From the NCBI RefSeq assembly GCF_001468265.1, contig NZ_LNRZ01000004.1:310001-374000 (forward strand): a stretch of DNA of 64,000 nucleotides, written 5' to 3'. Positions 58,882-62,316 of the stretch are shown here, one piece after another. This stretch comes from Sphingopyxis sp. H050. GTDB taxonomy: Bacteria; Pseudomonadota; Alphaproteobacteria; Sphingomonadales; Sphingomonadaceae. Each line of letters opens with the position of its first letter. The first letter of the stretch is position 1. Made by a program: the position numbers and the translations under genes. Under the pieces are notes generated by a model. It ran no database searches and was not told the DNA's origin. It worked only from the letters and a program-made list of their open reading frames with translations.

Positions 58882-59319
58882 TTAGCGCAGCACGCCTCTC
58901 GACGCTTGCGCACGGGCGTAGAGATAAAGGGCGATCAGAATTACCCAGATGATCGCGGTGAAGATCGTCGGGAAGTTGCCGAACAGGCGCGTCAGATCGC
59001 TGTAATGTAGGCCGAACTGATAGATGCAGCTGATGGCCAGGCCGACCAGCGAGATCAGGAAGGCAGTAACCGCATGACGGCTGCGGATCAGAAGCAGGAT
59101 GGACCCCAGCATCGAACCCCAGACGCCGAGCGCCCAGCCGATGTTCGCCCAGAGCGGAAAACCGGCGAACCACGCCTGCTGTTCTGCCGAGAAGGCCGCG
59201 AGATATCCGGGATCCTTTATTTTGGTCATGACATAGTCGAACGCGCCCACGGCGTTCCACAATAGCGAGACGACCCCGACCACCCAAAGGTGCCACGGCG
59301 TCTTGACGGCATCGGTCAT
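58882..59319 (-). CDS. Conserved membrane protein, 145 aa
   Basis: Four predicted membrane helices. It opens MTDAVKTPWHLWVVGVVSLLWN and has a LWANIGWALGVWGSMLGS second region. This is a common sphingomonad membrane protein of unknown role. It is convergent with the isomerase gene. ATG 59319 follows GGAGGG. Confidence 0.78.
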   Translation of the reverse strand: MTDAVKTPWHLWVVGVVSLLWNAVGAFDYVMTKIKDPGYLAAFSAEQQAWFAGFPLWANIGWALGVWGSMLGSILLLIRSRHAVTAFLISLVGLAISCIYQFGLHYSDLTRLFGNFPTIFTAIIWVILIALYLYARAQASRGVLR

Positions 59320-59562
59320 AGGCTTTCCCCCTCCAGAAAGATCAGATCATGCTATCAGATTTTGCGCGGGCGATCAACGAAGTGATATAGTCGCGCAATA
59401 CAGCAGGATCGCGACCTTGGTGGCCGTGCGCTCGACGGCGAGGTCGCGATGATCGAGGGCAGACGTGAAGCGGGCGGCCGTCCCGGTGGAACGACCGCCC
59501 TGAATTTCCGGATCGGCTGAAGCCAATCCGTCGCCCCCGCGGAGGCGGGGCGCGACGAGCTC

Positions 59563-60111
59563 TTACTTCGGCGCGATCACCATGACCATCTGGCGACCTT
59601 CAGTGCGCGGATGGGCCTCGACCTTGGCGATTTCGGCGGTCATCTCGGCGACGCGCTGGAGCACGTTGAGACCGAGCTGGGTGTGGCTCATTTCGCGGCC
59701 GCGGAAGCGCATGGTCATCTTGACCTTGTCGCCTTCGCCCAGGAAGTCGAAGACCTTCTTCATCTTCACGTCGAAATCATGATCGTCGATGTTCGGACGC
59801 ATCTTGATCTCTTTGATTTCCTGCGTCTTCTGGCTCTTGCGAGCGAGGTTCGCTTTCTTCTGGGCTTCGTATTTGAACTTGCCCACGTCGAGGAATTTGC
59901 ACACCGGCGGATCGGCGTTGGGGGAGACTTCGACCAGGTCGAGGCCGACTTCAGCCGCCTGTTCGATCGCTTCGGCAGTCAGCATTACGCCCAGATTTTC
60001 CCCTTCCTCGTCGATCACGCGGACCTTCGGAGAGGAAATGAACTCATTGTATCGCGGGCCGTTTTTGGGCGGCACGGGCGCCATCGAGCGGCGGGTCATG
60101 GGCGGTGGTAT
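59563..60111 (-). CDS. infC: Translation initiation factor IF-3
   Basis: IF-3 has an N-terminal domain ([23 protein letters not shown]), a linker helix and a C-terminal domain with KIKMRPNI-like [16 protein letters not shown] and [13 protein letters not shown]. It blocks subunit joining and checks start codons. I place the start at ATA 60111, in frame, with AGGAGA 7 nt upstream; the first ATG (60099) has no ribosome binding site. Rare start codons allow IF-3 to repress its own translation, as AUU does in E. coli. Confidence 0.9.
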
Positions 60112-60257
60112 AGCTGTATCTCCTGGTCGTTTACGATAGGCGCGCGGAATCGACGCAATCGCGGCGCGCCATGCCCATATAGTGAACGCGGGCGCTGCGT
60201 AAAGGCTGCCCCGGTCACAAAGATGACGCTTTTCGCCGCGCTGTGGCGGTTATGCCA

Positions 60258-61457
60258 CTACCATTTGGTCGGCGCAGGATCGACGACGCGGAAACCGCCG
60301 GCCCCGATCTCGCTGACCTCGAGCGCGCGCGTGGCGATGCCGCGGTTGTTGAAGCGGAAAATGCCGTCGATGCCGCCGAAGCCATCGGCGGCAAGCAGGC
60401 GCGACGCTGGGAAGGTCGTCCCCGGCTTCCACTCGCGCGCGATGCGCACCGTCAGCAGCACCGAGTCGTAACCAAGGCTGGCGAGCCGGTATGGCGCCTT
60501 GCCGAAGCGGGCGCGGTATTTGGACGCGAGCTGGCCATAGAGGCCGTCCGAAACGGAAGCGAACCACGAGCCGCGCATCGCGGCGTTGCCGCCGAGCGAG
60601 GCGTCGGTGTTCCACAGCTCGGTGCCGAGGATCTGCCGGTTGCCGGTGCCCTTGACGATCGGGACCGCGCGCACGGCGTTGCCGCCCGAGTCGGCGATCA
60701 ACACCGCATCCATCGCGCCGGCGTTGGCGAGGCGGCGCGCCGCGCCGGTGAGCGCGGTCGCGCTGCGGTCGTAGCTTTCGACCGCGACGAGGGTGCCACC
60801 GGCTTCGGCAACCGCGGCGCGGAAGGCCGCGGCCGAGCGGTCACCATAAACGGTCTTGGGCACGAGCGCGCCGAAGCGCTGATGTCCCTTGGCGCGCGCG
60901 AAGGCGACGACGCGCTCGACCGACTGGCCAGGAACGAAGCCCATGATGAAGACGCCGTTGCCGGCGACGCTGCTGTCGTTCGAGAAGCTGAGGACAGGCA
61001 CCTTCGCATCGCGCGCCACGGGAGCGACGGCGGCGACATCCTCGCTGAGCAGCGGCCCCAGGATCAGCTTGTTGCCGTCGGCGACCGCCTGCCGCGCCGC
61101 CGCGGCGGCGCCGAGCGCGGTGTCATAGGTGGTGATGCGAACCTTTTCGGTGCGCGAGTCGAGCAGCGCGAGCGTCGTCGCATTGGCGATCGCCATGCCG
61201 ACGTCGGCGTTGGGACCGGTCTGCGGCACCAGCAGCGCGACGCGGTGGCGGTCGGTGTCGGTGGGCAGGCCGGGGCCGACATTGTCGGTCGGGGTTTCGG
61301 GCGGCGGCGCGGTCGCGGGGCCGTTGGCTTTGGGCACCATCTGGCACGCCGCGAGCAGACCGCCGAGCGCCAGCGTCGCCATGCCGCGCAGCATTCGGCG
61401 CCGCGACGACGCATTCGCTTGGCGCTGGGCAGCAGTTTCTGCCATTTTCGGCTTCAT
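60258..61457 (-). CDS. LpoA-like / periplasmic-binding lipoprotein
   Basis: A 399-aa lipoprotein with a lipobox LLAAC (Cys38). The rest is a type I periplasmic-binding fold (VALLVPQTGPNADVGMAIANA, GNKLILGPLLSEDVAAVAPVA). In alphaproteobacteria this position next to rsmI-yraN holds a penicillin-binding-protein activator, the counterpart of E. coli LpoA. It is divergent from rsmI, with the two start codons overlapping. Alternative starts lie at 61475, 61472 and 61445. Confidence 0.85.
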   Translation of the reverse strand: MKPKMAETAAQRQANASSRRRMLRGMATLALGGLLAACQMVPKANGPATAPPPETPTDNVGPGLPTDTDRHRVALLVPQTGPNADVGMAIANATTLALLDSRTEKVRITTYDTALGAAAAARQAVADGNKLILGPLLSEDVAAVAPVARDAKVPVLSFSNDSSVAGNGVFIMGFVPGQSVERVVAFARAKGHQRFGALVPKTVYGDRSAAAFRAAVAEAGGTLVAVESYDRSATALTGAARRLANAGAMDAVLIADSGGNAVRAVPIVKGTGNRQILGTELWNTDASLGGNAAMRGSWFASVSDGLYGQLASKYRARFGKAPYRLASLGYDSVLLTVRIAREWKPGTTFPASRLLAADGFGGIDGIFRFNNRGIATRALEVSEIGAGGFRVVDPAPTKW

Positions 61458-62316
61458 GCCGGATTCGACCATCACAAAATCTCCCTTACCCGGACTCTAT
61501 ATCGTCGCGACGCCGATCGGCAACCTCGGCGACATCAGCGCCAGGGCCGCCGCGACGCTGGCCGCCGCCGATGTCATCGCGGCGGAGGACACGCGCGTGA
61601 CCGCGAAACTTCTGTCGCACCTGGGTTTGCGCGTTCCGATGACCCCCTATCATGACCATAGCGACGAACGCACCCGCGCTACCCTGGTTGCGCGCATGGC
61701 GAGCGAAGTTGTCGTTTTGGTGTCGGACGCCGGCACGCCGTTGATTTCGGATCCCGGCTACAAGCTGGTCCGCGATGCGCGCGCGGCGAGACGGCATGTC
61801 GCCACCCTGCCCGGCCCCTGCGCGGCGATCGCGGGAATCACCCTGTCGGGTTTGCCGAGCGACCGTTTCCTCTTCGCGGGTTTCCTGCCGAACAAGGCAA
61901 AGGCGCGCGCCGACACGATCGCCGAGTTTGCAGGGCTGCGGGCGACATTGGTTTTCTACGAAAGCGGCCCGCGCCTCTCCGCCGCGCTCGGCGCGCTGGC
62001 CGAAGGTCTGGGCGATCGCGAGGCGGCCGTCGCGCGCGAGATCAGCAAGCTGTACGAAGAATGCGTGACCGGCACGCTCAGCGAGCTTTCCGCGCGCTAT
62101 GCCGATGCACCGCCCAAGGGGGAGATCGTCGTGATCGTCGGGCCGCCCGGGGAGCCGGTGGCCGAGGACGCCGACGAAGCGACGATCGACGCAGCGCTGC
62201 GCAAGGCGATGGCCGACAAGCCTGTTGCGCAGGCCGCAAAGGCCGTTGCCAAGCAATATGGCCTCGACCGGCACGACCTTTATGCCCGTGCGCTTGGCCT
62301 GAAAGAGCAGGCTTGA
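61456..62316 (+). CDS. rsmI: 16S rRNA (cytidine1402-2'-O)-methyltransferase
   Basis: A 286-aa SAM enzyme: LYIVATPIGNLGDIS at the start, AEDTRVT, SDAGTPLISDPGYKLV and FYESGPRL are the RsmI motifs. It methylates C1402 in the decoding centre. It overlaps yraN by 4 nt (TTGA) and shares a start region with the divergent lipoprotein gene. Confidence 0.95.
   Translation: MPDSTITKSPLPGLYIVATPIGNLGDISARAAATLAAADVIAAEDTRVTAKLLSHLGLRVPMTPYHDHSDERTRATLVARMASEVVVLVSDAGTPLISDPGYKLVRDARAARRHVATLPGPCAAIAGITLSGLPSDRFLFAGFLPNKAKARADTIAEFAGLRATLVFYESGPRLSAALGALAEGLGDREAAVAREISKLYEECVTGTLSELSARYADAPPKGEIVVIVGPPGEPVAEDADEATIDAALRKAMADKPVAQAAKAVAKQYGLDRHDLYARALGLKEQA

What the first reader, a model, noticed from the sequence alone, without database searches (positions are those of the whole stretch)
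60097..60124. infC probably starts at AUA
The first ATG (60099) has no ribosome binding site, whereas an in-frame ATA at 60111-60109 lies 7 nt after AGGAGA. IF-3 rejects non-standard starts, and infC in E. coli uses AUU for autoregulation. An AUA start would be a similar circuit and automatic annotation may have missed it.
Basis: partly seen in the sequence, partly recalled or inferred. Interest (0 to 1): 0.5.

Follow-up and report, generated by a model that had tools for sequence, protein, structure and literature searches.

The report
IF3 gene starts at AUA codon
The gene for the protein that polices start codons very probably begins at an unusual AUA codon here and in its relatives, which would let the protein limit its own production; this is a known kind of control found in a new place, so it is mainly an annotation correction with strong comparative support.

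Summary
In a Sphingopyxis-like genome, infC (minus strand) has an in-frame ATA at 60111-60109, 7 nt after AGGAGA (60124-60119). The first ATG (60099) has no Shine-Dalgarno (SD) match, and no ATG/GTG/TTG lies upstream in the open frame.

One genome alone does not exceed chance, but comparison does. Among 56 distinct Sphingopyxis-type loci the ATA is kept in 56; the 60099 ATG is lost in 8. ATA is only 2 of 409 Ile codons in those gene bodies. Among 356 distinct infC loci across Pseudomonadota, 340 have an in-frame ATH (ATA, ATC or ATT) with an SD. In 91 no ATG/GTG/TTG exists between the upstream stop and the IF3 core; all 91 have the ATH (none of these 91 is in the genus or named sets). The signal is frame-specific.

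Best explanation: translation starts at AUA, and IF3's discrimination against it gives negative feedback, as with E. coli AUU. The start is strongly supported; the feedback is inferred. Known kind: AUU (E. coli, Xanthomonas), AUC (Streptomyces), AUA (S. aureus). New member; modest interest.

The parts
60120..60124 (-). Shine-Dalgarno sequence AGGAG (AGGAGA to 60119), serving the AUA
   Evidence: in 56 Sphingopyxis-type loci the four GGAG columns have a mean major-base frequency of 0.99, against 0.54 for the 23 columns further upstream
60109..60111 (-). Proposed AUA start codon of infC
   Evidence: ATA in 56 of 56 distinct Sphingopyxis-type loci; in-frame ATH with SD in 340 of 356 distinct infC loci; frame-specific
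59563..60111 (-). infC coding sequence read from AUA (182 codons plus stop): translation initiation factor IF-3
   Evidence: TIGR00168 equivalog 224.8 bits against a cut-off of 60; Pfam IF3_N and IF3_C for the 178-aa form
60097..60099 (-). First ATG of the frame, the start that an ATG/GTG/TTG-only gene finder would offer; rejected as the main start
   Evidence: SD match only 2 pairs; not ATG in 8 of 56 close relatives
60250..60252 (-). In-frame stop upstream; no ATG/GTG/TTG between it and the AUA
60258..61475 (-). Neighbouring upstream gene, LppC/LpoA-like lipoprotein (Peripla_BP_6, LppC)

Best explanation
infC is translated from the AUA at 60111-60109, directed by the AGGAG 8 nt upstream, giving an IF-3 four residues longer at the N-terminus than the ATG-based reading. 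fMet-tRNA pairs with AUA with a third-position mismatch. IF-3 destabilises 30S complexes on such codons, so abundant IF-3 lowers its own synthesis and scarce IF-3 raises it: the feedback known for the E. coli AUU start. Shown here by sequence: the AUA, its SD, their conservation, and the absence of an alternative start in many wider relatives. Inferred: initiation at AUA in this organism, and the feedback.
For: (1) Only ATA 60111 has an SD, and no NTG lies upstream in the frame. (2) ATA in 56/56 close relatives; the ATG at 60099 is lost in 8/56. (3) Not a plain Ile codon: Ile in the same 56 gene bodies is ATC 386, ATT 21, ATA 2; 5 of the 6 Ile-only columns vary; 17 of 165 third positions are invariant. 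(4) 340 of 356 distinct Pseudomonadota infC loci have in-frame ATH plus SD; 8 of 356 have NTG plus SD without it; 91 of 356 have no NTG between upstream stop and IF3 core and all 91 have ATH plus SD. (5) Codon-blind scan: the best SD-positioned codon is ATH in 275 of 356, NTG in 3, another codon in 78. (6) Frame control, ATH with SD of 5 or more pairs: genus set 32/33 in frame, 0 and 0 in the other frames; other alphaproteobacterial loci 215/253, against 18 and 19; other Pseudomonadota 59/70, against 7 and 4; NTG in the 253: 27, 22, 15. (7) An in-frame stop directly before the ATH in 20, and within 6 codons in 93, of 340. (8) AUA start of infC seen by Ribo-Ret in S. aureus (PMC13009471, passages). 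(9) Positive control: an E. coli RefSeq infC is annotated from ATT shortly after an SD and before the IF3 core, and the method picks that ATT in the near relative L297.
Against: No peptide, ribosome-profiling or reporter data for this organism. In Caulobacter (same class, by general knowledge) only 24.6% of starts are preceded by an SD (PMC4117421, passages), so lack of an SD at ATG 60099 does not by itself exclude initiation there; the ATG is kept in 48 of 56 relatives. None of the 33 genus and 62 named loci is free of a downstream or upstream NTG, so in the closest relatives a canonical start is never strictly impossible. 32 of 356 loci also have an NTG with an SD, 24 of them beside the ATH; 16 of 356 lack the ATH plus SD. 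The feedback was not tested, and two residues of IF-3 (E. coli Y107 and R116, aligned by eye) are F and D here. The 16S rRNA end of this genome could not be found, so the anti-SD is assumed.
Confidence: 0.8

Rival explanations
1. Translation starts at ATG 60099 without an SD; the ATA and AGGAG are incidental.
For: ATG is the first NTG of the frame; kept in 48 of 56 relatives; SD-less starts are common in Caulobacter.
Against: Lost in 8 of 56 relatives while the ATA is kept; 21 of 66 order-level and 46 of 125 class-level loci have no NTG at all in the region, all with ATH plus SD; between ATA and ATG columns +3, +6, +7, +9 and +10 are invariant while +4, +5, +8 and +11 vary, as in a coding stretch.
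Confidence: 0.03
2. The mRNA is leaderless: the conserved TATACC is a -10 promoter box and the transcript begins at ATG 60099.
For: TATACC ends 7 nt before the ATG, which would suit a leaderless gene (read).
Against: No sigma-70-like site found by a simple consensus scan (0 in 59300-60400; other promoter types not covered); an SD is conserved upstream; the base before ATH is not conserved over the wider set (C 157, T 138, A 31, G 14 of 340); ATG lost in 8 of 56.
Confidence: 0.02
3. AUA is an ordinary internal Ile codon of a longer protein started upstream.
For: The frame is open to 60252.
Against: No NTG upstream of the ATA in this genome nor in 28 of 56 close relatives; ATA is 2 of 409 Ile codons in the body; stops within 6 codons upstream in 93 of 340 loci.
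Confidence: 0.01
4. AUA is the start but only sets a low level of synthesis; IF-3 feedback is weak or absent in this lineage.
For: No feedback data for alphaproteobacteria were seen in the passages read; two IF-3 residues differ from E. coli.
Against: The SD-positioned codon is ATA/ATC/ATT and rarely an NTG across Pseudomonadota, which a mere weak start (GTG or TTG, or a poorer SD) would not require; R99, K110, R129, R131, R133 (E. coli numbering) are conserved (read by eye).
Confidence: 0.14

Closest known systems
E. coli infC (AUU start, IF3 autoregulation; Butler et al. 1987, known from citing passages in PMC5559785 and PMC5472188)
   Same: IF-3 gene; non-canonical ATH start; SD just upstream; start 15 codons (E. 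coli-like L297) or 21 codons (here) before the conserved Asn of the IF3 core
   Different: AUA instead of AUU; E. coli infC lies directly after thrS, here the gene upstream is an LppC/LpoA-like gene and the next sizeable ORF downstream (58882-59319) has no Pfam match; feedback untested here
Staphylococcus aureus infC (AUA, Ribo-Ret; PMC13009471, passages)
   Same: AUA start of infC; autoregulation called likely by those authors
   Different: Firmicute; start site shown experimentally there, by comparison here
Streptomyces infC (ATC; PMC5472188) and Xanthomonas infC (ATT, peptide-supported; PMC5559785)
   Same: non-canonical ATH start of infC; annotation reported wrong in most Streptomyces and in that Xanthomonas genome
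   Different: other third base; other lineages
Rhodobacter sphaeroides pifC (Babic et al. 1997)
   Same: alphaproteobacterial IF-3 gene; I recall an AUA start for it
   Different: recalled only: the paper is not held, so its start codon is unverified here

Membership tests
infC genes with a non-canonical start under IF3 feedback | encodes translation initiation factor IF-3 | tested here: met
   TIGR00168 equivalog 224.8-224.9 bits, cut-off 60; IF3_N and IF3_C
infC genes with a non-canonical start under IF3 feedback | start codon is AUU/AUC/AUA at SD distance, in frame | tested here: met
   sequence and comparison only; no protein evidence
infC genes with a non-canonical start under IF3 feedback | no canonical start can replace it | tested here: inconclusive
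   in this genome ATG 60099 and 60084 exist downstream without SD; 0 of 33 genus and 0 of 62 named loci, but 91 of 356 loci overall, have no NTG
infC genes with a non-canonical start under IF3 feedback | translation from this codon is repressed by IF-3 and relieved when IF-3 is low | not testable with these tools
   needs a reporter experiment
infC genes with a non-canonical start under IF3 feedback | change to AUG abolishes the feedback | not testable with these tools
   needs a reporter experiment

The most novel reading that the evidence does not exclude
The particular third base is under selection: AUA (not AUC or AUU) is held in Sphingopyxis although ATA is almost unused elsewhere in the gene. 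In the class draw alphaproteobacteria favour AUA (63 of 94), while the other sampled Pseudomonadota favour AUC/AUU (58 of 69); 17 further same-class loci from the phylum draw mostly use AUU (14), so the choice follows lineage. The whole device is dropped mainly in small-genome lineages. The start codon would then be a tunable set-point of the IF-3 feedback that evolves with lineage and is lost on genome reduction.
Probability: 0.45. Interest if true: 0.45.

Novelty: new member of a known kind. Interest (0 to 1): 0.28.

Why it matters
It corrects the N-terminus of an essential factor for a genus and probably for most alphaproteobacteria (271 of 286 distinct loci sampled have the same layout). 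It shows that a start codon which the gene's own product is expected to reject is retained in nearly all loci sampled in the phylum. That makes the IF-3 feedback testable in lineages outside E. coli, and the lineage-specific choice of third base offers a natural series of set-points.

Tried and rejected
Single-genome statistics: not significant alone (5 of 71 AGGAG sites). Leaderless/promoter reading of TATACC: rejected. RNA structure at the start: none beyond chance (z 0.99 and 1.87, i.e. less stable than shuffles); no Rfam family there at gathering score (only a tRNA elsewhere in the window). Anti-SD of this genome: no 16S found by pattern or by RF00177, so assumed. One search compared gene bodies with a misplaced anchor (39/38/8 invariant columns); it was redone with a motif anchor, and only its upstream/SD/spacer figures are used. 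One search's line labelled '60087 equivalent' is codon +8, not the second ATG (60084, codon +9); I did not use it.

Papers: 10 searches. Among the titles and abstract starts listed I saw no survey of infC start codons in alphaproteobacteria and none for Sphingopyxis; some searches listed 3 of 4, 12 of 19, 12 of 14 and 12 of 46 papers. The library is open-licence only, and an arXiv item on genes preferring non-AUG starts (seen only in a reference list) was not read. PMC5487733 held no mention of infC or IF3. PMC4117421 (Caulobacter ribosome profiling) has no 'infC' in its main text and 'IF-3' only in a reference. PMC6199135 and PMC2268962, seen as passages, mention R. sphaeroides IF-3 but not its start codon.

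Samples left out: of 60 genus genomes matched 36 were fetched; of 110 phylum matches 12 were not fetched; 2 of 70 order and 5 of 115 class genomes had no match. 378 loci became 356 after dropping the duplicate L001 and identical stretches.

The field covers start plus feedback, so it now reads 0.8; I hold the start alone at 0.93. The no-feedback rival moved from 0.15 to 0.14 to fit.

Full report
What is in the sequence. On the minus strand infC (IF-3) ends at 59563. Its first ATG is at 60099-60097. Four codons upstream, in frame, is ATA (60111-60109), 7 nt after AGGAGA (60124-60119). The protein is IF-3 (TIGR00168, 224.9 bits against a cut-off of 60; IF3_N and IF3_C). The nearest named records are Sphingopyxis (up to 98% protein identity), so I call the genome Sphingopyxis-like. 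The open frame runs back to a stop at 60252, and within it there is no ATG, GTG or TTG upstream of the ATA. Of the in-frame NTG, CTG or ATH codons (ATH = ATA, ATC or ATT) from 60060 to that stop, only ATA 60111 has an SD match (5 pairs, aligned spacing 7); ATG 60099, ATG 60084 and GTG 60075 have 2 pairs each. The stretch around the AUA is predicted to be little structured. In one genome this could be chance: 5 of 71 AGGAG sites of the window have an ATH codon at that distance, this one included.

Close relatives. I took the genus loci fetched here (36 of 60 genomes matched) and 40 named GTDB loci (L032-L071, mostly Sphingopyxis). They gave 56 distinct stretches. The codon is ATA in 56 of 56. 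The codon equivalent to ATG 60099 is ATG in 48, ACG in 6, ACC in 1 and GCC in 1. In 28 of 56 there is no NTG upstream of the ATA in the open frame. Conservation starts abruptly at the SD: 23 columns upstream have a mean major-base frequency of 0.54, GGAG 0.99, the spacer 0.95, ATA 1.00. If the ATA were an ordinary Ile codon it should drift: in the same 56 gene bodies Ile is ATC 386, ATT 21, ATA 2; five of six Ile-only columns vary; and 17 of 165 third positions are invariant. Against a strict proof in the genus: in none of these close relatives are all NTG codons missing between the upstream stop and the IF3 core (0 of 33 genus and 0 of 62 named loci).

Wider comparison. I added loci from the order (66), the class (108) and the phylum (87 distinct), giving 356 distinct stretches with the genus (33) and named (62) sets. 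An in-frame ATH with an SD of at least 4 pairs at aligned spacing 4-10 is present in 340 of 356 (271 of 286 alphaproteobacterial and 69 of 70 other loci). NTG with such an SD is present in 32, 24 of them beside the ATH and 8 without it; 8 have neither. In 91 of 356 there is no ATG, GTG or TTG between the upstream stop and the IF3 core, so a canonical start is impossible on the sequence as given; all 91 have the ATH with SD. A scan that does not look at codon identity picks ATH as the best SD-positioned codon in 275 of 356, NTG in 3 and another codon in 78, many of these being the codon just before the ATH and others lying elsewhere in the frame. The signal is confined to the IF3 frame: 32 of 33 genus loci against 0 and 0 in the other frames, 215 of 253 other alphaproteobacterial loci against 18 and 19, and 59 of 70 other Pseudomonadota against 7 and 4. 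NTG shows little such enrichment (27, 22, 15 in the 253). Aligned spacing is 5-8 in 338 of 340 and 7 in 196. A stop codon directly precedes the ATH in 20 and lies within 6 codons upstream in 93.

Control. An E. coli RefSeq record annotates infC from ATT after GGAGGAATAAGGT; the same pipeline picks the corresponding ATT in a near relative, L297.

Which codon where. ATA/ATC/ATT counts: genus 33/0/0; named 53/9/0; order 53/12/0; class 63/22/9; same-class loci from the phylum draw 2/1/14; other Pseudomonadota 11/39/19. Exceptions in the class draw: 14 of 108, in genomes of 0.6-2.4 Mb, against a median of 2.7 Mb for the other 94 (one-sided Mann-Whitney P = 1.4e-5, no phylogenetic correction, some genomes incomplete); 13 of 46 genomes of at most 2.0 Mb and 0 of 53 above 2.4 Mb. 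Some of these (e.g. L247, whose frame runs off the fetched stretch, and L167, with an ATT plus 4-pair SD 56 codons up) may be limits of the method. One exception lies in a larger genome of the order draw (L118, about 3.2 Mb) and one outside the class (L298).

Mechanism. AUA pairs with the initiator anticodon CAU with a third-base mismatch. [quoted passage not shown] AUA/CAU was not in the passages I saw (PMC10158994). In E. coli the AUU start of infC is the basis of IF-3 autoregulation (Butler et al. 1987, cited in passages of PMC5559785, and PMC5472188). In S. aureus, Ribo-Ret density marks an AUA start of infC, and AUA/AUU reporters of three other genes gave about 10% of AUG expression in poor medium (PMC13009471, passages). 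By analogy the Sphingopyxis AUA makes infC synthesis low and IF-3-sensitive. Aligned by eye to the solved chain 8jsg_A, residues Y75, R99, K110, R129, R131 and R133 are conserved, Y107 is F and R116 is D; that some of these affect codon discrimination is recalled.

Comparison with the known. Non-canonical infC starts are established: AUU in E. coli, in Xanthomonas (peptide support) and in Yersinia (peptides upstream, PMC3091656, passages), and stated for B. subtilis (PMC1805508, passages); ATC in Streptomyces; AUA in S. aureus. I recall an AUA start for Rhodobacter sphaeroides pifC, but that paper is not held. So this is a new member of a known kind. What the present survey adds is the retention in 271 of 286 sampled alphaproteobacterial loci, the fixity of AUA in one genus whose Ile codon in this gene is nearly always ATC, and the losses in small genomes. 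I saw no survey of this in the ten searches named in Tried and rejected, in an open-licence library only.

Verdict. The start at AUA is strongly supported (0.93); start plus IF-3 feedback 0.8, the feedback being inferred. Interest is modest because the principle is textbook.

Noticed in passing
L155, L157, L167, L217, L223, L247, L257, L266, L267, L268, L280, L284, L288, L289 (class draw): The ATH plus SD start is missing in 14 of 108 class-draw loci, all in genomes of 0.6-2.4 Mb; several appear to start at ATG, GTG or TTG. It suggests loss of the feedback on genome reduction.
   Followed up: partly
L118 (G062:C1, same order, about 3.2 Mb): Lacks the ATA at the expected place (TTC TCC there); an ATG about ten codons further up, without a good SD, may have taken over. 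A possible natural loss of the non-canonical start.
   Followed up: partly
60112-60119 and equivalents in Sphingopyxis-type loci: The spacer between SD and AUA is itself nearly fixed (mean major-base frequency 0.95 over 8 columns) while the sequence further upstream is not (0.54); no reason known.
   Followed up: no
same-class loci of the phylum draw (e.g. L331, L342, L371, L372, L374): 14 of 17 use ATT rather than ATA: the third base looks lineage-specific.
   Followed up: partly
G000: No 16S rRNA gene found in the assembly by pattern or covariance model although it is rated 99.99% complete.
   Followed up: partly
61129-62316 (+) and 60258-61475 (-): An rsmI-type methyltransferase ORF (TP_methylase, RsmI_C) on the plus strand overlaps, as listed from its first GTG, the LppC/LpoA-like ORF on the minus strand; its domain begins at residue 123, so the true rsmI start is probably further in.
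   Followed up: no
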